NCBI GenBank assembly: GCA_022447205.1
Contig: JAKVBQ010000031.1
Coordinates: 1 to 38,624 of the forward strand
DNA: 38,624 nucleotides
Direction of reading: 5' to 3'
Origin: Phycisphaerales bacterium
GTDB lineage: Bacteria; Planctomycetota; Phycisphaerae; Phycisphaerales; SM1A02
The translations under genes were made by a program, and so were the position numbers. Shown one piece after another: positions 8,498 through 18,599 of this stretch (within the stretch, counting starts at the first letter, position 1; each line of letters opens with the position of its first letter). A model generated the notes under the pieces. It was not told the DNA's origin. It was given only the letters and a program-made list of their open reading frames with translations, and made no database searches.

Positions 8498-9477
8498 AGA
8501 TCCGACAAGGCCGAAGAAGCCGACGCACGCGCAGGGCATTCACCCTGGTGGAGCTGCTCGTGGCAGGCATGGCAGGTGTCCTCGTGATCGGAGCCGTGAC
8601 CATGGCGCTCTTCCAGAGCACGCGGGCACGGAACGCAACGAAGGTCCGTCTGACGGCGTACAGCCGGGCCGGCGCTGCGCTCGACATCGTGCGCAAGGAC
8701 ATCGCCTCCATCATGAGACGAGCGGACCTCTTCGAGACCCGCCTTCTGATCTACGACGACTCGGTGCTCACGTCCAGGGACCTCTACGACCGGGACGAAC
8801 TGCTGCTCTTCAACACCAGCCTTCGACCCACGAGACCGAATGAGTATGCAGGTGAAGGCCAGGAGTATGAATCGCAGTTCCGGGTCGGACAGGACGAGAC
8901 CGGGATCGCGATGTGGCAGCGACGCGATGCGGTACCGGACGAATGGTCGGATGCCGGCGGTCTGGCGACCCCCGTGGTCAGCGGCATCGTCGGACTGAAG
9001 ATCGAGGCCTATGACGGCGAATCATGGTTCGATGAATGGGACTCCGACATCGACGGCATGCCGTGGGCGATCCGCCTGACCGTCACTGCAACCGGCAATG
9101 AATCCCCCGAGAAGATCTACGAGGATCCCCAGATGTTCGCGGTTCTTCGAACGCAGGTGCCGATCGATCGGATCGTCCCGCCCCTGCCTCCTGTCCCCGA
9201 GGAAGAGGAACTCCTCGAAGAGGGCATGGTGGACGAGGAGATGCTCGAAGAGGACACCGGTGGAGTCGGCGGCGGTGGTGGCGGGTTTGGACGACCAGGC
9301 GGAGGCAGACCTGAAGGTGGTGGACGTCCCGGTGGAGGCGGCCGCCCCGGAAGCGGTGGTCGTCCCGGTGGTGGCAGACCCGGCGGCGGCCGACCTGGCG
9401 GAAGTGCCGGCGGTGGTGGTCGACCTGGCGGCGGTTTCGGCGGCGGCGGTGTCGGCAATGGAGGAGGCCCGCGCTGA
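8494..9477 (+). CDS. gspJ: type II secretion minor pseudopilin, GspJ-like, with Gly-Arg-Pro tail
   Basis: A GTG start at 8494 overlaps the gspI stop and follows GGAGG at 8482-8486. The leader ends RRA, followed by FTLVELLVAGMAGVLVIGAV, so the peptidase site has Ala rather than Gly at -1; this is seen in some prepilins. The pilin-like domain runs to about residue 225 and includes the segment TGNESPEKIYEDPQMFAVLRTQVPIDRI, in keeping with GspJ. A very acidic stretch (PEEEELLEEGMVDEEMLEED) follows. The last ~70 residues (from about 256) are almost only Gly, Arg and Pro, built from repeats of GRPGGG. GspJ normally ends at the folded domain, so the tail is unusual. The next gene overlaps the stop by 1 base. 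GspJ is assigned from order and length. Confidence 0.82.
   Translation: MKIRQGRRSRRTRRAFTLVELLVAGMAGVLVIGAVTMALFQSTRARNATKVRLTAYSRAGAALDIVRKDIASIMRRADLFETRLLIYDDSVLTSRDLYDRDELLLFNTSLRPTRPNEYAGEGQEYESQFRVGQDETGIAMWQRRDAVPDEWSDAGGLATPVVSGIVGLKIEAYDGESWFDEWDSDIDGMPWAIRLTVTATGNESPEKIYEDPQMFAVLRTQVPIDRIVPPLPPVPEEEELLEEGMVDEEMLEEDTGGVGGGGGGFGRPGGGRPEGGGRPGGGGRPGSGGRPGGGRPGGGRPGGSAGGGGRPGGGFGGGGVGNGGGPR
9262..9474 (+). repeat. GGC/GGT-rich repeat coding a Gly-Arg-Pro tail
   Basis: Imperfect short repeats of Gly, Arg and Pro codons (GGTGGTGGC, CGACCTGGCGGC and variants) encode repeated GRPGGG units at the C-terminus of the GspJ-like protein. Such tracts can change length by slippage. Confidence 0.8.
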
Positions 9478-10858: not shown

Positions 10859-12871
10859 GTGATTCTCAGGCTGCGAAAGGACCGCTGGGCTGCACTCAGG
10901 GCCTCTATCGGTGTGGACCGGATCGAAGTCGTCGAGACCCGTTCCTTCCCGCTGGAGGAGCTGTCTGCGGAGGAGGCAGAAGATGGCGGGTCCGCCAACT
11001 CCCTGATCAACTGGCTCGAGGCGGAGGGCTCCCCCAGGACCTACCTCCTCCTGCCCGCGGGGATCACGATCTCAAGGGTTCTGCCACTGAGCGCTGATGG
11101 AGACGCGGAAGACCTCGACCTCTCACTCCGCCTCCAGGCGGAATCCCACCTGCTGGGCGGGGCCTCGGCCCACCGAATCTGCATGGCAAGCCTGCCGAAG
11201 CGTTCGGATTCCGCCAACCAGGGACTGGTGATCACCTGGCCGGAATCCTCGAAGGTCCAGCTTCCCCTGCTGGTCGAGGATCCCTCCTGCATCACCGAGA
11301 CCACCGCCTTGCTGGCCATGCTGCCCGAAGGTCCGCTCGAGGGCCCCATGCTTCATGTCGAGCGAAGCACCGGTTCACTCGCCCTGGTGCTCGAACACGA
11401 AGGACAGCTCGCGGTCCGTTCCACTCGAGAGGAAGCCCATGACGGCGCGGCCTGGCAGAAGGCGATCGTGCATTCCGTCGTCGAGACCGCGATCACGAAC
11501 CACCAACCGACGGAAGACGTTCAGGCCCTTCGTGACACGGTGATGAAGGCGATGGACGGACAGGAGGAGCTGCTCCTGCTTCCCGATGCGGCAAGGGAGC
11601 ATGTGACAAGTCGGGTCTCCGGAGGCGGAGATGATGACTGGTGGCAGGAATGGGGCATCTGCGCAGGTGCACTCCTCGCATCCTCCGGCAGACTGCAACC
11701 GCTCACCAGCCTGAGACCCAGAAAGCCGATCGAAAGCGCGAACACCTTCGGCGAGATCACGGCAAGCCTTGCACGACCGATGACCGCGGCCTGCATTCTG
11801 ATCGGGGCGTTCTTCGCGATCGCCCTTCTTCCGCTGATCACCTCATGGCTTCGCCTCGCGATCATCGAAGCCAAGGTCGATGACCAGAAGCAGCTCGAGA
11901 AGATCCTGCAGACCACGAAGCAGCAGGAGGCCGTCTACAACGAGATCGCCAATCGTTCCTGGCCGATGACCAAGGTGCTGGGCGACGTCGCCAACTGCAT
12001 GCCTCTGGGGATCGAGACCGACCAGATCACCGCCAACGAAGGAGACGCGGTCATCATCCGCGGCTCGGTCGGACCATACGGTGGCAAGACCCCGAAGGAG
12101 ATCCTGTATGAGATGCAGGTTCGCCTGGACGATGTCGGGATCTTCGGCCCCTGGGACCTCAGCGAGGATCCGATCAACAGTGGTGGCAAGATCGATTTCA
12201 CCATCTCGATCCCGGTCATCACGCCCTTCAAGTACGTGCGCAACTTCAGCGAGGACTTCGCGGAGAAGTCCCATGGCGAGCGCCGGTACGCCGAGACCTA
12301 CGCACGAATCGCCGCACTGGAAGCCGAGAAGAACGGTGAATCGGGTGCCTCCGCGACATCCGGGGAAACGACGGATTCAGAAAGCGCCGCATCAGATGCG
12401 TCCGCTCCCGCCGAGACCACGATCGCTCGTGCGGACAACCCGCGAAGCGGATCCTCCTCGAGCTCGAGGGACAGCAGGGATTCCGCCGAGGATGAAGGCG
12501 GAGCACCACCTGGGGTGGGTCGGGAATCGCTCAGCGGTGTCCGGGGCGGGTCGACCGCGAGCAGGCGATCGAGCAGCTCCTCTTCTTCAAGTCGTGCCGG
12601 CTCGATTCGCGGGTCCAGCGGAAGTGCTGTCCGCCGGAGTGACGCGAGTGGTGCCGTGAGCACCGGTGGCGAAGCACCTGTCCCGGAAATCCTGACCGAC
12701 ACGGAACTGGCCGCTCTCAGCAAGCCCGAGGCTCAGGAAGAGCTGAAGCGGGTCTCGATGGCCCGAAGACGGACCGACCTCGACGAGGAGACCAAGGCGG
12801 CGCTTCGAACGTATTTCGACAGGATCCTCGAACACATGAAGTCGATACCGAACACGGGAGGCTCCCTGTGA
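10859..12871 (+). CDS. gspL: GspL/PilM-PilN-like fusion, inner-membrane assembly protein with unusual C-terminal module
   Basis: This 670-residue protein links the cytoplasmic ATPase to the periplasmic alignment complex. Residues 1-300 resemble the actin-like cytoplasmic domain of GspL/PilM (strands at the very start, then SYLLLPAG-type segments). One membrane segment lies near 307-330 (AACILIGAFFAIALLPLI). A PilN-like periplasmic domain (about 335-470) has the pattern WPMTKVLGDVANCMPLGIE followed by VIIRGSV. A Ser/Arg/Gly-rich disordered linker runs from about 490 to 610. A final module at 621-662 carries RRRTDLDEETKAAL and recurs in the GspC-like protein. The annotated GTG 10859 has no ribosome site and starts directly at a beta-strand, so the true start may lie upstream; see findings. 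The gspM gene overlaps the stop by 4 bases. Linker and tail are not part of ordinary GspL. Confidence 0.82.
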   Translation: MILRLRKDRWAALRASIGVDRIEVVETRSFPLEELSAEEAEDGGSANSLINWLEAEGSPRTYLLLPAGITISRVLPLSADGDAEDLDLSLRLQAESHLLGGASAHRICMASLPKRSDSANQGLVITWPESSKVQLPLLVEDPSCITETTALLAMLPEGPLEGPMLHVERSTGSLALVLEHEGQLAVRSTREEAHDGAAWQKAIVHSVVETAITNHQPTEDVQALRDTVMKAMDGQEELLLLPDAAREHVTSRVSGGGDDDWWQEWGICAGALLASSGRLQPLTSLRPRKPIESANTFGEITASLARPMTAACILIGAFFAIALLPLITSWLRLAIIEAKVDDQKQLEKILQTTKQQEAVYNEIANRSWPMTKVLGDVANCMPLGIETDQITANEGDAVIIRGSVGPYGGKTPKEILYEMQVRLDDVGIFGPWDLSEDPINSGGKIDFTISIPVITPFKYVRNFSEDFAEKSHGERRYAETYARIAALEAEKNGESGASATSGETTDSESAASDASAPAETTIARADNPRSGSSSSSRDSRDSAEDEGGAPPGVGRESLSGVRGGSTASRRSSSSSSSSRAGSIRGSSGSAVRRSDASGAVSTGGEAPVPEILTDTELAALSKPEAQEELKRVSMARRRTDLDEETKAALRTYFDRILEHMKSIPNTGGSL

Positions 12872-13521
12872 ATCTCCCCGAAGACCACATCCTCCGGAAG
12901 ACGGTGGAGAACGCTCGGACTCACTACGAGGGGTTCTCGCGTTCGACGCGCACCCTCGTGATCGTCGGAGCAGTCTCACTCCTGATCCTCGCGGTCCTGG
13001 AATCGTGGACCGCCGCGGAAGCCTACGACAAGCAGACCGAGGCTCTCCTCACGAACATGTCGACCGCCAGGGCGACCAAGACCCAGCTCAGACCGTCATT
13101 CCGAGACCGCGTGCTGTCCCTGGGCACGATCCGACTTCCCGAGGCGAGCCTCGAACCGACGGCAGCCGAGCGGAACCTGAAGCTCGCGGTCGACCAGATC
13201 CTCGCCAAGTACGGTGCGGAGAACGAGAAGACGGATCTGGGACCGGGCGCTGCGATCGCAGCGAACCGTCTTCCCGAGATCCCCAGGGCCCCCGGTCGAA
13301 GACTGACCAAGATCAGCCTTCGAATCGAATTCGACTGCGCGCAGGACAACGCACCGTCGGTCATCAGTGCACTGGAATCCTCCCCGGAGGTCTACACCAT
13401 CACCCGGCTCCAGATCAGGCGGTACGAGGATGGTCAGGAGCAGGTGCGCAAGCTGGTGAACGTGAACCTGACCCTCGAGACCTGGGCGCTCAGCAAGAGC
13501 CGATTGGGAGGACGTGGCTGA
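12868..13521 (+). CDS. gspM: GspM/PilO-like inner-membrane alignment protein
   Basis: A 217-residue bitopic protein with a short cytoplasmic N-terminus, one membrane helix near residues 30-48 (TLVIVGAVSLLILAVLESW), a coiled-coil-like stretch (AEAYDKQTEALLTNMSTARATKTQL) and a small periplasmic alpha/beta domain that ends LVNVNLTLETWALSKSRLG. This layout is that of GspM/PilO, which dimerises with GspL/PilN to form the periplasmic ring under the secretin. Sequence identity to named GspM is low, so the call rests on topology, length and position between L-like and C-like genes. The GTG at 12868 overlaps the previous stop (GTGA). The following gene starts about at its stop codon. Confidence 0.72.
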   Translation: MNLPEDHILRKTVENARTHYEGFSRSTRTLVIVGAVSLLILAVLESWTAAEAYDKQTEALLTNMSTARATKTQLRPSFRDRVLSLGTIRLPEASLEPTAAERNLKLAVDQILAKYGAENEKTDLGPGAAIAANRLPEIPRAPGRRLTKISLRIEFDCAQDNAPSVISALESSPEVYTITRLQIRRYEDGQEQVRKLVNVNLTLETWALSKSRLGGRG

Positions 13522-13522
13522 C

Positions 13523-14443
13523 ATGCGAATGCAGGATCACCTCCCATCCTCCCTCAGGGCTCCGGGCCTGTTCTTCGTGAGCGCGGCCGCCCTCCTGCTC
13601 TCCTCGGCCTTCGTGCTGTCGAGCTTCTCGACGATCATGGATGCCAGCATGGAATCCTCGGTGAATTCAGAGGATGCGGACATCGTGACCCGACTCCTTG
13701 CCGACAACCCGGTCATCGTGCGATCCGAAGAGCGCTTTTCAGGCAGGTCGATCTTCTACATCCCCCGGGCACCCCGGGTTCCGGCACCTCCACCACCCCC
13801 ACGGGTCGTGGTCGAGGAGAGACCTCCGGAACCTCCGCCGCCCCCGCCACCCCCGCGCATCCCGACCACCTATGGGGGCCCGGCAATCACGGGCATCCTC
13901 GGCAAGGACGTGTTCTTCGCGAACAACAAGAGAATCCCCGAAGGCATGGAATCCGAAGGCGTGACGGTGCTCATCGTCCGAGGGCCGTTCAACGTCAAGC
14001 TCGGCTGGCAGGGCGGGGAATTCGAGATCGACCTCTTCACCAAGGAGCTCCCGGACTACTTCTCGGAGCCTCCCTTCTCGGATGGAAGTTCCTCGGACAT
14101 CTTCGCGACCACCGCAGGCTCCGATTCGGGCGTGAGGAGCACCAGCACGAGCAGCGTGAGCAGACCTCAAGCGCCGTCGGGAAGTTCGAGCCGAAGCGCA
14201 CGAGACATGGCGAACGAACGCTCCGAGCAACTGAGCCGGGAACGCGGCCAGGACGCGGAGATTCCCGAGCCCCTCGACCAGGAGGCATTGGGCGACATGT
14301 CCCGGATGGATGCGATCCGTGCGATGACCAAGATCAACTCGGCACTGCGAAGGCAGGATCTCGACGCGGAGACGAAGGAACGCCTGCAGGCCGACCGGAA
14401 GCAGCTCGAATCGAGGATTCGGAGTGCAAGCCAGAATCAGTAA
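13523..14443 (+). CDS. gspC: GspC/PilP-like connector protein with Pro-rich linker and shared C-terminal module
   Basis: This protein probably joins the inner-membrane platform to the secretin. One membrane helix lies near residues 12-35 (LFFVSAAALLLSSAFVLSSF). A proline-rich span (about 88-114, including PAPPPPP and EPPPPPPPPRIP) should cross the periplasm as a rigid rod. A small beta-rich domain follows (about 120-175: YGGPAITGILGKDVFFANNK and then VTVLIVRGPFNVKLGWQGG), like the homology region of GspC or PilP that binds the secretin N0 domain. A Ser/Arg-rich linker leads to a C-terminal module at 260-301 with LRRQDLDAETKERL, the same pattern as the end of the GspL-like protein. ATG 13523 lies 11 bases after GGAGG and is preferred over GTG 13514, which would sit only 2 bases from it. 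GspC is placed late here, unlike the gspC-first order of proteobacteria. Confidence 0.75.
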   Translation: MRMQDHLPSSLRAPGLFFVSAAALLLSSAFVLSSFSTIMDASMESSVNSEDADIVTRLLADNPVIVRSEERFSGRSIFYIPRAPRVPAPPPPPRVVVEERPPEPPPPPPPPRIPTTYGGPAITGILGKDVFFANNKRIPEGMESEGVTVLIVRGPFNVKLGWQGGEFEIDLFTKELPDYFSEPPFSDGSSSDIFATTAGSDSGVRSTSTSSVSRPQAPSGSSSRSARDMANERSEQLSRERGQDAEIPEPLDQEALGDMSRMDAIRAMTKINSALRRQDLDAETKERLQADRKQLESRIRSASQNQ

Positions 14444-14632
14444 GGATGCGAGGCCCTCGTGGCCGAATCGAGGCAATCCCGGCCGAACCGGGACGTTTCA
14501 CATGACTCGGGTACAGTGCACTGCAGCACCGGGACTCACCCTCCCGGAAGGTACCCCCAGAAGGCCTTCAAACGGACTCGAACAGCAACGAGTCCAGGAC
14601 GCACGGCGAACAGCCGGCAAGGAGCTCGGATC
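14444..14632 (+). promoter_or_regulatory. secretin leader with palindrome and two hairpins
   Basis: This gap holds three symmetric elements: TCCCGG-ccgaa-CCGGGA at 14477-14493, the 10-base palindrome CAGTGCACTG at 14514-14523, and GGACTCG-aacagcaa-CGAGTCC at 14574-14595, whose 7-bp arms match perfectly. The last hairpin ends 37 bases before the secretin GTG. None is followed by a T-run, so a classical terminator is unlikely. I see no clear promoter hexamer pair. Confidence 0.45.
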
Positions 14633-17251
14633 GTGATCAAGCGACTCAACTGGCCCCATCAGATCACGGGAATCGCCTTCCTGGTGATCCTGTCAATGGC
14701 CTCGAAGGCGGTCGTTGCCCAGGACGAGGAAGGCACTCCGCCTCCCCCCGCGGAAACCGAAACCGTGACCGAGTCCACCGCTCAGGAAGCCGCGACTGAA
14801 GCCGCAGAACCTGCCGTCGTGGAAACGGAAACCGATACGGTCGTGCCGGAAGCGCAGGAGGAACCGACTGACCCGGGCGAGACGCTGGTCAACCTGAACC
14901 TCCAGAAGCGCCCCGTCGAGGACATCATCGAGTACATCGTCAAGTGGACCGGCAAGGTGGTGATGGTCCAGGAGCAGGCCCTCCTGTCCAAGAAGATCAC
15001 CGTCCTCGCAAGGGAGCCGGTCCCCCAGCGACAGGCGATCGAGCTGCTCTTCCAGGCGTTCAAGCTGAACGACCTCGCCGTCGTCGAGACCGACGACATG
15101 ATCATGATCGACCAGATCACCGACATCAGGCAGCTCCAGCCGGGCGTGGTCTACGGACCGGATGTCGAGATCAGCGACCTCCCGGACGATGGCAACATCG
15201 TGATCAAGGTCTTCCAGATCAAGGAGGCCCGGGCCCAGGACATCTTCGACCAGCTGGAGACGAGCAAGCCCGACTACGTCGAGATGACCGTCGACGTGAA
15301 CTCGAACCAGATCATCGTCGAAGGCGACATCGGGTTCGCCAAGCGGATCGCGAACCTGATCAAGATCCTTGATGTCGAACCGTACATCGCGGTCAAGGTG
15401 GAGACCTTCCGACTGAAGTACGCGGACGCGAACACCGTGGCAGGTCTGATCGAGACGCTCTTCGCACCAAGCGGAGCCCCGACGTCGGGATCAACCAGGA
15501 CCTCCACGAACTCGCAGCAACAACGAGGCCGGACCCAGACCGCCAGTCGGAACAACAACCAGAACGTGGTCGAGGTCGGAACCAGCGAGCAGCTGACGGT
15601 CACCGTCCTCGAACCGACGAACTCGATCACGGTGCGCGCCGAACCCGACATCCTGACCGAGATCACCAGCCTGCTGGAGACCGCATGGGATGTCGCCCCC
15701 TCCCAGGAGGGTGAGATCTTCCGCATCTACGACCTCAAGTACACCGATCCGATCAAGGTCAAGGACCTCCTGTCCGCACTGCTCGAGAACGGAGCCGGCG
15801 GCAGCGCCGGTGGAGCCCGGGGGCAGCAGCGAACGCAGCGGACCACCGGGAATGCCGGCAGTGGCGCGGATGCCGCCGTGGCCAACATCTTCCGGATCGA
15901 GGCCTACCCCGACTCCAACCGACTCATCGTGATCAGCAAGTCGCCGAGCAACTTCGAGTGGCTGGACCAGATGATCATGAAGATCGACGAGCCGTTGACC
16001 GTCGGGATGCCGGTGAACATCGAACTCAAGCATGCCAGTGCGATCGAGGTCGCGGAGATCCTCAATGCGCTCCTCGCCTCGGCAGGTTCGAACAGCAGCA
16101 TCTCCGCACCCGAGGAAGGGCTTTCAGGAGTCGACTTCGGTGTCGCCGGCAGCAATGCCACCAACACCGGTGGCGGCAGCGGAGGCGAGCAGGAGATCTC
16201 CTTCCCGTGGCAGAGCAATCGAGGCGCCGGGGGCGATGCGGCTGAAGTCAGTGCGATCGTCGGCAAGGCAAGGGTGGTCCCCAACTCCGCCCAGAACTCG
16301 CTGCTGGTCCTGGCGACACCCGAGATCCAGGACGCGGTGCTCGACATCATCCAGGAACTCGACCGACCCGGCCGTCAGGTCATGATCACGGCAGTCCTTG
16401 CGGAAGTCGAACTCGGTGACGACTTCGAATTCGGACTCCGATTCGGCAACGTGACTTCGGTCAACGGCGAGAACGCCGTGGTCATCAACGGGCAGGGCAC
16501 GAACGGTTCGATGTTCGCCGCGACCAAGGACGACATCTTCTCCACCTTCGCGACGAGCATCCTCAGCTTCGGCGTCGATGCCACCGTCGTCCTCCAGGCG
16601 CTGGACCAGCTGACGAACACCAGGATCCTCCAGCAGCCGAGGATCTTCACTTCCGACAACAAGGAGGCGAAGTTCTTCGACGGCAAGGATGTCCCCTTCC
16701 AGTCCAGCGGTGAATCCACTTCCGGCGGCGGCAACGTCATCGCAAGCTACGAGCAGATCGCGGTGGGCATCGGTGTGAACGTCAGGCCCCGCATCACCCG
16801 GGAGAAGAACGTCGCAATGGAGATCGAGATCCTCCTCTCGAACGTCGACAACACCGGTGCCGGCAGCCCCGGGAACAACCCGACCATCAAGCGACGCCAG
16901 ACCAACACCACCGTCACCGTCAAGAACGGCCAGACGATCGTTCTTTCAGGCATCAGGACCGAATCCGAAGCGATGATCGAGCGCAAGGTCCCGCTGCTGG
17001 GAGACATTCCGATCCTCGACCTGGTGTTCTCCTCGAAATCCGAGAACACGGTGGTCAGCGAACTCGTCGTGTTCATCACCCCGATCGTGGTGGACAACCC
17101 AGACGAGAACGACATCAACTTCAACGAGCTGGACAGACGCCGTCTCGAGCAGCTTGCGGATCCCCTCAGCGAGCGGACCGAACAGCTGAAGGAGAAGTTG
17201 GGCGTGAACGAGGGCGGCGGATCCGGCAAGGTCGATCCTCGCAGGGATTGA
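14633..17251 (+). CDS. gspD: type II secretion/type IV pilus secretin (GspD/PilQ)
   Basis: The secretin forms the multimeric outer-membrane gate. GTG 14633 follows AAGGAG (14619-14624) at 8 bases and yields a normal signal peptide: MIKRLNWPHQITG, hydrophobic IAFLVILSMASKAVVA, then QDEE. This gives 872 residues; the longer in-frame extension to 14459 runs through the hairpin leader and is rejected. After an acidic/Pro linker comes the N0 domain (LVNLNLQKRPVEDIIEYIV), then three N-type KH-like repeats, each ending in segments such as ANLIKILDVEPYIAVKVETF, with Gly/Ser/Asn-rich loops inside. The secretin core is complete: DIIQELDRPGRQVMITAVLA, TNTRILQQPRIF, and near the end the GSGxx-type strands TTVTVKNGQTIVLSGI and VPLLGDIPILDLVFSSKS. 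Only one secretin is in the window, so it may serve both filament systems. The next gene, a lipoprotein, starts 19 bases later and could include a pilotin role. Confidence 0.95.
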   Translation: MIKRLNWPHQITGIAFLVILSMASKAVVAQDEEGTPPPPAETETVTESTAQEAATEAAEPAVVETETDTVVPEAQEEPTDPGETLVNLNLQKRPVEDIIEYIVKWTGKVVMVQEQALLSKKITVLAREPVPQRQAIELLFQAFKLNDLAVVETDDMIMIDQITDIRQLQPGVVYGPDVEISDLPDDGNIVIKVFQIKEARAQDIFDQLETSKPDYVEMTVDVNSNQIIVEGDIGFAKRIANLIKILDVEPYIAVKVETFRLKYADANTVAGLIETLFAPSGAPTSGSTRTSTNSQQQRGRTQTASRNNNQNVVEVGTSEQLTVTVLEPTNSITVRAEPDILTEITSLLETAWDVAPSQEGEIFRIYDLKYTDPIKVKDLLSALLENGAGGSAGGARGQQRTQRTTGNAGSGADAAVANIFRIEAYPDSNRLIVISKSPSNFEWLDQMIMKIDEPLTVGMPVNIELKHASAIEVAEILNALLASAGSNSSISAPEEGLSGVDFGVAGSNATNTGGGSGGEQEISFPWQSNRGAGGDAAEVSAIVGKARVVPNSAQNSLLVLATPEIQDAVLDIIQELDRPGRQVMITAVLAEVELGDDFEFGLRFGNVTSVNGENAVVINGQGTNGSMFAATKDDIFSTFATSILSFGVDATVVLQALDQLTNTRILQQPRIFTSDNKEAKFFDGKDVPFQSSGESTSGGGNVIASYEQIAVGIGVNVRPRITREKNVAMEIEILLSNVDNTGAGSPGNNPTIKRRQTNTTVTVKNGQTIVLSGIRTESEAMIERKVPLLGDIPILDLVFSSKSENTVVSELVVFITPIVVDNPDENDINFNELDRRRLEQLADPLSERTEQLKEKLGVNEGGGSGKVDPRRD

Positions 17252-17270: not shown

Positions 17271-18599
17271 ATGTCCATTCCCGCCTCCCCGGCTGGTCGC
17301 GCAAGGAACACGGGATCCGGCGGCATCGCCCTGTGCTGCTGCCTGATTCCCATGTTCGCATCGGGATGCATGGTGAAGGAGACTTCACTGAAGGGTGCCA
17401 GCCGTCTGGTCATCCCGGCAGGTGACACCTACGAGTTCGCCGAACGTCGGGAGGATCTGCCCGACACCCCGATGATCACGCAGACCAGCATGGCAAGCAC
17501 GATCGCCGTCGCGGCCCTGGGGACCGTTCCCTATGACGGGTTCACCCTGCCGATCACCTCATCCTCGACGGAGAAGCAGTACGTCGCGGTCCAGCTGGGC
17601 CCTTCGATTCCCATCGACATCATGCTCGCAACAGGTCGAGGGGCTGCGACCGCAGGCGAGGTGGCAATCTACGAATGCAGTGCAGACGAGGATCCGCTGC
17701 TGGTCAGGACCCACTCCGGCAGCATCATCCTCGGACGAAACTCGAATCGAGAGGGCGTGCTGGTCGAGAAGGCGAATGCGGACGGCTCCCGCTGGATCGG
17801 CCTGGCGCCCTGGAACGGCGAGGACATCCGCTGGATCGTCTCCAACAGCAACGTCAACGCCTTCGGGTGGGTCAACGAGGATTCGACCCTGGCATACGCG
17901 CGCAGGACGACCGATGAGACACGGTTCGAGCTGGTGGTCCGTGCCCCTGACGGGTCGGCATGGATCGTCGAGGAGACGCTCCCCTACTCATGGGAGTATC
18001 CGATGCTCGCCCCCTCCGGCGAAAGCCTGTTCGCATTGAGACGTGGCGAGGGGTTCGCAGATCTCGCATGGGGTGGCGCGGACGACGAGCTGACGTTCCG
18101 GGACACGCTGGTACTTCATCGGACAAGTGACCGAGTGGATGACCTGCGAGCGTGGGAGACCCTTGCCGCCGCGGCCGGTGGTGCCGGCATCCGGGAGGGA
18201 GAGGTCGCGTGGTTCTCCCGAGAGCTTCGTCGCCTCGTGCTGTGGACACCGGAAACCGGGGAAATCAAGCTCCTTCCCGAAGGCACGGTCGCCGCATGCA
18301 AGCAGTCGGAAGCAGGTGAATGGCTGGTGACCGATGCCGACTCCCTCGAACTTGCGGCCATCCTCACGACCACGACCGCGACCTCGCTGATCTTCGAACA
18401 GCCCTGGATCGCCCGTCCGAGCATCGAGGAGAACGCCGTCCTTGCACTTGCCCGGGATGGCTCTCTGGAACTCGCGCTCCTCAAGACCACGGCCATGGAG
18501 GCGGAAACGCCGGTTGATCCGGCTCCGAAGATCGAGCCGGTGGAACCGGTGCCAGTTGAACGGAACGCCACGACGGTTCGTGACCCCAGGATGGACTAG
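17271..18599 (+). CDS. lipoprotein of unknown function, last in the secretion operon
   Basis: The N-terminus has a hydrophobic stretch and an acceptable lipobox ending in FASGC, with Cys at residue 33, so it is probably lipid-anchored. I do not recognise the rest. The 442-residue sequence has repeated short strands with Trp-centred motifs (SRWIGLAPWNGEDIRWIVSN and similar) and looks like a beta-propeller, but no family can be named. The C-terminus is Pro/Glu/Val-rich (DPAPKIEPVEPVPVE). GAGGAG at 17254-17259 precedes the ATG by 11 bases. It follows gspD by 19 bases, the place where pilotin or pilus-associated lipoproteins often sit. It is much larger than pilotins (about 130), so a pilotin role is only a guess. 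It ends tail-to-tail with a small minus-strand gene, sharing the bases CTAG. Confidence 0.78.
   Translation: MSIPASPAGRARNTGSGGIALCCCLIPMFASGCMVKETSLKGASRLVIPAGDTYEFAERREDLPDTPMITQTSMASTIAVAALGTVPYDGFTLPITSSSTEKQYVAVQLGPSIPIDIMLATGRGAATAGEVAIYECSADEDPLLVRTHSGSIILGRNSNREGVLVEKANADGSRWIGLAPWNGEDIRWIVSNSNVNAFGWVNEDSTLAYARRTTDETRFELVVRAPDGSAWIVEETLPYSWEYPMLAPSGESLFALRRGEGFADLAWGGADDELTFRDTLVLHRTSDRVDDLRAWETLAAAAGGAGIREGEVAWFSRELRRLVLWTPETGEIKLLPEGTVAACKQSEAGEWLVTDADSLELAAILTTTTATSLIFEQPWIARPSIEENAVLALARDGSLELALLKTTAMEAETPVDPAPKIEPVEPVPVERNATTVRDPRMD

What the first reader, a model, noticed from the sequence alone, without database searches (positions are those of the whole stretch)
12719..14425. 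A shared C-terminal module in two different secretion-machine proteins
The GspL-like (residues 621-662) and GspC-like (residues 260-301) proteins are unrelated over the rest of their length. Each ends in a ~42-residue segment that aligns without gaps. I count 13 identical residues, centred on RRxDLDxETKxxL, plus conservative changes, with matching Ser at both ends. In both it follows a disordered Ser/Arg-rich linker. The segment is not part of known GspL or GspC families. It may be a docking tag that holds the two proteins to a common partner, or a dimer helix. A recruited mini-domain in both members of the inner-membrane complex would be a new feature of the machine.
Basis: seen in the sequence. 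Interest (0 to 1): 0.72.

Follow-up and report, generated by a model that had tools for sequence, protein, structure and literature searches.

The report
Portable helical tail on secretion-machine proteins
In one group of planctomycete bacteria, a 54-residue helical tail ends one protein of the type II secretion machine in almost every species, was later added to a second machine protein, and has been copied onto kinases, lipoproteins and other exported proteins, so it looks like a plug-in docking domain for the machine.

Summary
GspL 609-662 and GspC 251-304 end in the same ~54-residue three-helix module (BLASTP 18/48 identical, E 7e-6; GspL-tail and GspC-tail profiles match at 99.5% probability). 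The pair-specific reading fails. In 61 related genomes this GspL was found in 47 and bears the tail in 45; for the other two, tail-bearing C-terminal pieces lie elsewhere. GspC has it in 14 of 46, probably after one or two gains. So do 28 collected proteins outside the T2SS, in 19 genomes (DUF1579 proteins, STN/N1 'mini-secretins', Ser/Thr kinases, TlpA-like and VWA proteins, lipoproteins), and one GspD. In 25 of 28 an export or anchor segment precedes it. Of 12 extra tails outside the DUF1579 family that could be ranked, 10 most resemble their own genome's GspL tail; one is a 90%-identical DNA copy. Distant GspL relatives in seven other genomes of the class lack it. No Pfam or NCBIfam family covers it. 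Most likely it is a mobile periplasmic docking module for the T2SS platform, perhaps pairing tail-to-tail. No partner was identified.

The parts
10859..12871 (+). GspL: actin-like cytoplasmic domain about 1-285, TM 307-339, ferredoxin-like periplasmic domain about 343-451, disordered linker 496-604, tail 609-662
   Evidence: AlphaFold model; Foldseek to PilM and T2SS GspL cytoplasmic domains; K-L-M-C-D gene order
12344..12670 (+). Ser/Arg-rich disordered linker of GspL (residues 496-604)
   Evidence: pLDDT about 29-35; least conserved region against two relatives, 50% and 28% identity, tail 66% and 48%
12683..12844 (+). Tail module of GspL (residues 609-662): helices 614-618, 622-636, 643-662
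12868..13521 (+). GspM, between the two tail carriers, no tail
   Evidence: NCBIfam XpsM-type GspM E 1.1e-5 and Pfam T2SSM_b E 0.0012, both below curated cut-off; no tail hit
13514..14443 (+). GspC: TM 18-46, Pro-rich linker, HR-like beta domain 125-173, disordered linker, tail 251-304
   Evidence: AlphaFold model; gene position
14264..14425 (+). Tail module of GspC (residues 251-304): helices 256-261, 264-278, 285-308
14459..17251 (+). GspD secretin, no tail here; a relative in L097 has one
   Evidence: Pfam/NCBIfam; no tail hit; for L097

Best explanation
The tail is a small, autonomous, mobile docking domain that works in the periplasm. Its home is the C-terminus of GspL, where it hangs from the ferredoxin-like domain on a flexible tether of roughly 110 residues. 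[quoted passage not shown] Other exported proteins have gained copies repeatedly. A protein that gains the tail is brought to the inner-membrane platform of the T2SS. The contact most likely is tail against tail (helical hairpins pairing), or else all tails use one shared partner. SHOWN: homology, position, lineage restriction in the samples searched, repeated spread. SHOWN BY PREDICTION ONLY: the helical fold and the extracytoplasmic place. INFERRED: that it docks at all, that the dock is the T2SS platform, and that pairing is homotypic.
For: GspL is the constant host: in 61 genomes the tail was found on GspL in 47, GspC in 14 and other proteins in 9, never on the latter two without GspL. Distant GspL relatives in seven other genomes of the class have no tail, so it is an add-on. 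It is predicted with confidence beside a disordered linker in both proteins and ends 1-16 residues from the C-terminus in GspL, 2-23 in GspC. It was added to families whose members mostly lack it: DUF1579, 57 matches in 27 of 41 genomes, tail in 3; STN/N1 proteins, homologues in 23 of 41 genomes, tail in 1. Of 12 extra tails outside the DUF1579 family with an own GspL in the set, 10 rank it first of 49, the other two third. The G007 copy is 263/292 nt identical including linker and sequence past the stop: of 78 codons 62 same, 6 synonymous, 10 nonsynonymous; dN/dS 0.48 over 75. 25 of 28 carriers have a hydrophobic export or anchor segment before the tail. STN/N1 proteins, which resemble the secretin N-domains that GspC contacts (PMC3169554, passages), carry it in four genera. 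All seven DUF1579 carriers fetched have exactly two tails, which suits pairing or avidity. In X. euvesicatoria the GspC, L and M homologues form one complex (PMC11981180, passages).
Against: No partner was identified and no complex could be modelled. Co-variation of GspL and GspC tails beyond their bodies is inconclusive: partial r 0.18, 355 of 5,000 permutations as high, 18 pairs. The strongest conserved positions look like helix caps and core, with no obvious exposed binding site (my inspection). 32 of 46 GspC have no detectable tail, so GspC does not need it. None of the 28 carrier stretches (3.8-11 kb) holds a relative of GspE, J, K, L, M, C or D, so the link to the T2SS rests on GspL, GspC and one GspD. 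Against G013 the GspC tail is barely better conserved (33%) than its linker (29%).
Confidence: 0.45

Rival explanations
1. Every tail binds the same third molecule (a secretin N-domain, GspM, another envelope protein, or peptidoglycan); GspL and GspC are two of its clients, and the carriers are brought to that molecule rather than to the T2SS.
For: The carriers are mixed envelope proteins with no T2SS genes beside them; long tethers allow reach away from the platform. Own-genome resemblance of tails would also follow from co-evolution with one receptor.
Against: No receptor is known. Own-genome resemblance is explained by recent copying at least in G007.
Confidence: 0.25
2. The tail is a T2SS client signal, like the CTD of the type IX system, which cargo shares with the machine proteins PorA, PorU and PorZ.
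For: A shared C-terminal domain between machine and exported proteins; the T9SS precedent (PMC11285876, passages); soluble exported carriers such as DUF1579 and beta-lactamase-fold proteins.
Against: 38 of the 47 genomes with a tailed GspL showed no carrier outside the T2SS (three hits of E 0.006-0.008 not followed up), so it is no general secretion signal. Several carriers are kinases with a TM or probable lipoproteins, which a T2SS would not be expected to release. In L147 the tail is near the N-terminus and in L094 and L095 internal.
Confidence: 0.1
3. A structural cap or self-oligomerising helper of GspL with no recruiting role; extra copies are neutral products of recombination that stay because they do no harm.
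For: Short helical hairpins are common dimerisation units (recalled); a fresh copy exists; a GspL periplasmic domain is a dimer (PMC6233222, passages).
Against: At least six lineages gained copies in frame (G007, G020, G024, G026, G032, genus g35), on proteins that look exported wherever the N-terminus is intact; tandem tails are kept in all seven DUF1579 carriers fetched, from two genera. In three of four comparisons with relatives the tail is about as conserved as the folded domains while the linker drifts; in the fourth (GspC, G013) it is not.
Confidence: 0.17
4. Chance or low-complexity similarity between two Ser/Arg-rich tails.
For: Both tails follow low-complexity linkers and are helical.
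Against: clean gap between tail hits and background; 6 of 294 genomes across the phylum hit at E <= 1e-4, all in families f1 and f2 of the same order.
Confidence: 0.01

Closest known systems
T2SS inner-membrane platform GspC/GspL/GspM (XpsCLM, PMC11981180; GspC HR-GspD N0, PMC3169554; passages of both seen)
   Same: Same genes, order and topology; GspC with TM, Pro-rich linker, HR-like beta domain and a C-terminal domain
   Different: GspL here has an extra linker and helical tail (together about 165 residues), homologous to the end of GspC and of other proteins; the seven distant GspL relatives checked elsewhere in the class have no tail
PDZ or coiled-coil C-terminal domain of GspC (PMC3169554, PMC12369372; passages seen)
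   Same: Same place in GspC; a helical domain there has precedent (XcpP coiled coil)
   Different: The module is homologous to the GspL tail; no such sharing is mentioned in the passages seen
T9SS C-terminal domain shared by cargo and PorA/PorU/PorZ (PMC11285876; passages seen)
   Same: One C-terminal domain on machine parts and on other exported proteins
   Different: Helical instead of an Ig-like beta-sandwich; few or no carriers per genome; some carriers membrane-anchored
GlyGly-CTERM/rhombosortase (PMC3237569, passages seen) and PEP-CTERM (PMC1569441, listing only)
   Same: C-terminal homology tail on many unrelated exported proteins
   Different: Those are motif + TM helix + basic end and are processed (partly recalled); this is a folded domain without TM
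Ribosomal protein uL29 hairpin
   Same: Similar predicted three-dimensional arrangement (VIA Z 8.4, rmsd 1.4 over 56 residues)
   Different: No sequence homology (hhalign probability 1.0%); such Z values are common for helical bundles (note)

Membership tests
GspL (T2SS) | Actin-like cytoplasmic domain | tested here: met
   Foldseek with the model: PilM 5eou E 1.5e-6; GspL cytoplasmic domain 4pht E 3.4e-4; PulL 5tkw E 4.3e-4
GspL (T2SS) | Single TM then ferredoxin-like periplasmic domain | tested here: met
   AlphaFold secondary structure: long helix 307-339, then alpha-beta elements 343-451; by prediction only
GspL (T2SS) | Place in a gsp operon next to GspM | tested here: met
   E, F, G ... 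J, K, L, M, C, D order
GspL (T2SS) | Match to a curated GspL model | tested here: not met
   0 families at E <= 1 in Pfam and NCBIfam for the window's GspL. Not treated as decisive because fold and synteny agree
GspC (T2SS) | TM, Pro-rich linker, HR beta domain, second linker, C-terminal domain | tested here: met
   Order of elements in the AlphaFold model
GspC (T2SS) | HR domain matches solved GspC HR/PilP | tested here: inconclusive
   The helical tail filled the match lists; no PDB sequence hit
GspC (T2SS) | PDZ domain at C-terminus (usual but not universal) | tested here: not met
   Helical tail instead; coiled-coil variants are known
T9SS CTD | Ig-like beta-sandwich C-terminal domain | tested here: not met
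   Three helices, no strands in the models
GlyGly-/PEP-CTERM | Signature motif, TM helix and basic cluster at the very C-terminus | tested here: not met
   No hydrophobic helix in the tail sequences (inspection); architecture from passages
Any Pfam or NCBIfam family | Tail matches a curated model | tested here: not met
   31 GspL tails scanned in each library: best E 0.0027 (Pfam) and 0.0075 (NCBIfam), each family hit by one or two members only
uL29 ribosomal protein | Sequence profile homology | tested here: not met
   hhalign probability 1.0%, 8 columns

The most novel reading that the evidence does not exclude
The tail is a docking code: GspL displays a flexible plug, and a lineage can attach a periplasmic protein to the secretion platform by pasting on a copy. 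Ser/Thr kinases with TPR domains beyond the membrane, mini-secretins, TlpA-like proteins and lipoproteins would then be species-specific accessory subunits that sense, gate or service the T2SS.
Probability: 0.3. Interest if true: 0.82.

Novelty: new variant of a known kind. Interest (0 to 1): 0.62.

Why it matters
If true, the T2SS platform of these planctomycetes (all 30 named records found are metagenome-assembled) has a plug-in point, and the list of tailed proteins in each genome names its accessory subunits. It would be another case, besides the T9SS CTD, in which a secretion machine and other exported proteins share one C-terminal module. It is testable with small soluble domains in laboratory E. 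coli. The tail profile also helps to find GspL here, since no Pfam or NCBIfam model recognised the window's GspL.

Tried and rejected
Chance similarity: rejected by shuffles, the HMM gap and the profile-profile match.

Pair-specific docking tag: rejected; 32 of 46 GspC have no detectable tail and other proteins carry it.

Many independent GspC gains: not needed. On the quick GspL-body tree (45 rows; L069 and L080 left out beforehand as partial) the trait needs 3 changes, on the careful tree without contig-cut L039 and split L046 it needs 2, against a shuffled mean of 12.1. All bootstrap trees need 2, yet the AU test does not reject one clade (p 0.26). I read this as one or two gains.

Assembly chimera for the G007 carrier L084: unlikely; the copy differs from GspL by 10% and lies inside a 23.9 kb contig.

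uL29 ancestry: similar hairpin, no sequence support. PDB sequence search with the tail profile: best hit a chain named HeliScrew4 (E 1.6e-9, but over 15 positions only), next E 0.015; not pursued. Foldseek for GspC: no hit at E <= 0.001.

Mirror-tree test of GspL and GspC tails: inconclusive. The hydrophobicity background (356 of 592 ORFs at or above 1.9) used ORFs that are mostly not genes, and the 1.6 threshold behind '25 of 28' was chosen on sight, so that count has no proper control.

Weak hits judged unrelated: L101, L102, L103, L105; of the six own-genome hits, L002 and L004 after looking at their ORFs and L005 unlooked. L006 of that call is the DUF1579 carrier fetched later as L086. Not followed: three hits of E 0.006-0.008, G382:C144, two of three weak class hits, and family hits beyond the listing.

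Viral contigs: no relative of GspL found. Literature: searches over the PMC subset listed no paper that I recognised as describing this tail; that library is incomplete.
Full report
WHAT WAS CLAIMED AND WHETHER IT IS THERE. The finding says that the GspL-like and GspC-like proteins of a planctomycete type II secretion (T2SS) operon share a ~42-residue C-terminal segment. It is there: 13 of 42 identical residues, no gaps, Ser at both ends; GspC residue numbers shift by 3 if the GTG at 13514 is used. BLASTP extends it to 18/48 identical, E 7e-6. One of 20,000 shuffles of the tails reached the real score, and none of 1,000 locally shuffled full-length pairs did. At DNA level 53 of 126 positions agree, so the similarity is old.

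GENES. The operon runs E, F, G..., J, K, L, M, C, D by Pfam/NCBIfam and homology. The window's GspL has no curated family hit, but its model matches PilM and solved T2SS GspL cytoplasmic domains. GspC has the TM, Pro-rich linker and beta-domain order of GspC; its HR domain was not matched separately because the helical tail filled the structural match lists. Both models show the tail as a compact three-helix unit (pLDDT 91-98) after a disordered linker. By topology both tails are periplasmic.

DISTRIBUTION. GspL was found in 47 of 61 related genomes. The tail is on 45 of those 47 GspL; that HMM was built from the same 45, but the smaller profile A1 (31 of them) also found the tail in the 14 genomes left out of it, at E 2.4e-4 or better. 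The other two GspL are split: their C-terminal pieces, with tail, lie in L083 and L099. In 30 named Phycisphaerales/Planctomycetota loci, partly the same genomes, it is on 30 of 30 GspL. Family-wide, 164 of 181 genomes hit the tail profile at E <= 1e-4. In an even sample of the class 37 of 298 genomes hit at E <= 1e-3: 34 in families of the same order and 3 weak hits outside it. In the phylum 6 of 294 hit at E <= 1e-4, all in families f1 and f2. Searches scored at most 22 candidates per genome, so weak tails could be missed. Distant GspL relatives of seven other genomes in the class (eight ORFs, L152-L159; E 5e-11 to 3e-5 to the GspL profile; each with a GspD homologue in the stretch) are 487-554 aa and have no tail; one (L156) has a Pro/Ser-rich extension. 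The tail is therefore most likely a derived addition.

GspC. The HMM from GspL tails alone found the tail at the end of 14 of 46 GspC (E <= 1.2e-5; one of the 32 without it, L039, is cut by a contig end), and of 10 of 27 named GspC (an E 0.9 hit in L131 not counted). GspL-tail and GspC-tail profiles, the latter cut out with the GspL HMM, align over all 54 columns, probability 99.5%, E 1.3e-22. On a tree of GspL bodies the GspC tail needs 3 changes against a shuffled mean of 12.1. Without L039 and L046 it needs 2, in all bootstrap trees, while the AU test does not reject one clade, p 0.26. So GspC probably gained it once or twice.

CARRIERS OUTSIDE THE PAIR. I collected 28 further proteins with the tail in 19 genomes, plus one GspD (L097, residues 806-852). 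This is a sample: part of the family hit list was not shown, and I followed up 17 genomes chosen for extra hits or kinship. They include: DUF1579 proteins with two tandem tails, among them one in the window's own genome (L086; also L087, L088, L144, L145, L148, L149); STN/N1 'mini-secretins' (L084, L091, L093, L138, L141, and L147 with the tail near its N-terminus); Ser/Thr kinases with a TM and TPR domain (L092, L139, L142); vWF_A/YfbK-like proteins (L094, L096); TlpA/thioredoxin-like proteins (L137, L143); a beta-lactamase-fold hydrolase (L089); small lipoproteins or TM proteins (L098, L140, L146). Ten carriers were scanned against Pfam (DUF1579 in L086, Beta-lactamase in L089, Pkinase and TPR in L092, vWF_A in L094 and L096, YfbK_C in L096, Secretin_N E 0.0015 in L093; none for L084, L091, L095, L098). 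The other labels (STN/N1, TlpA-like, lipoprotein, and the further kinase and DUF1579 members) are my reading of the sequences. 25 of 28 have a hydrophobic segment before the tail that reads as signal peptide, TM or lipobox. Of the other three, L100 and L136 are cut by contig ends and L090 has no recognisable N-terminal part. None of the 28 stretches, 3.8-11 kb long, holds a relative of GspE, J, K, L, M, C or D.

HOW IT SPREADS. For 12 carrier tails outside the DUF1579 family whose genome has a GspL in the set, the own GspL tail ranks first of 49 in 10 and third in 2. GspC tails rank it 1-37 (first in 1 of 14) and the six DUF1579 tails that could be ranked 17-29. The tail tree, weakly resolved (53 columns, 6 of 98 inner branches starred), groups G007, G020, G024, G026 and G035 carriers with their own GspL (SH-aLRT 89, 98, 94, 89, 91). 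The G007 mini-secretin carries a 263/292-nt-identical copy of its GspL end, linker and sequence past the stop included. It has 62 identical, 6 synonymous and 10 nonsynonymous codons of 78; dN/dS is 0.48 over 75 codons. Homologues usually lack the tail: STN/N1 proteins occur in 23 of 41 genomes and only the G007 one has it; DUF1579 has 57 matches in 27 of 41 genomes, with the tail in 3. In the 61 genomes no tail on GspC or another protein was found without a tailed GspL.

MECHANISM. What is shown is a portable domain, by prediction periplasmic, whose constant host is GspL. What I infer is docking. GspL's long tether presents the hairpin away from the ferredoxin-like domain; a protein that gains a matching hairpin is held at the platform. 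Tail-to-tail pairing is the simplest contact: it needs no further receptor, explains a GspC gain inside a complex that already contains GspL (PMC11981180, passages), and fits tandem tails. A shared third partner is the main rival. A secretion signal like the T9SS CTD, also carried by PorA, PorU and PorZ (PMC11285876, passages), is less likely: 38 of 47 genomes showed no carrier outside the T2SS and several carriers look membrane-anchored. A test of GspL/GspC tail co-evolution was inconclusive (partial r 0.18, 355 of 5,000 permutations as high, 18 pairs). Conservation by region is mostly favourable: against G001 the tails keep 66% and 65% identity, the linkers 50% and 32%; against G013 the GspL tail keeps 48% (linker 28%) but the GspC tail only 33% (linker 29%).

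NOVELTY. No Pfam or NCBIfam family covers the tail. The fold resembles the uL29 hairpin without sequence support. A C-terminal PDZ or coiled coil on GspC is known. I saw no paper on a module shared by homology between GspL, GspC, a GspD and unrelated envelope proteins among those listed. I rate it a new variant of a known kind: a T2SS with a lineage-specific, transferable docking module.

Noticed in passing
window 14459-14633: The GspD ORF opens at GTG 14459, but a GTG at 14633 (MIKRLNWPHQITGIAFLVILSMASKAVVAQ) starts what reads as a signal peptide and is probably the true start.
   Followed up: partly
L097 3261-5852 (G320): A GspD secretin that itself ends in the tail module (residues 806-852), in a genome whose GspL also has it; the only case seen.
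   Followed up: partly
L138 4494-5432, G000:C45:55690-56217 and others: A family of small exported proteins that look like secretin N0/N1 domains without the pore, in 23 of 41 related genomes; function unknown.
   Followed up: partly
L046 and L083 (G032): GspL is split between two places about 0.7 Mb apart in a one-contig genome, with a run of X (N bases) in the translation at the break: an assembly gap or a rearrangement.
   Followed up: no
window 9180-9474: The GspJ-like pseudopilin ends in a long Gly/Arg/Pro repeat (GGRPGGGRPGG...), which looks unusual for a pseudopilin.
   Followed up: no
window 17271-18599: A 442-aa protein after GspD with a lipobox-like N-terminus and no Pfam or NCBIfam hit.
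   Followed up: no
L147 3317-4780 (G382): The tail lies near the N-terminus, after the signal peptide, ahead of STN/N1-like domains: the reverse order of the other mini-secretins.
   Followed up: no
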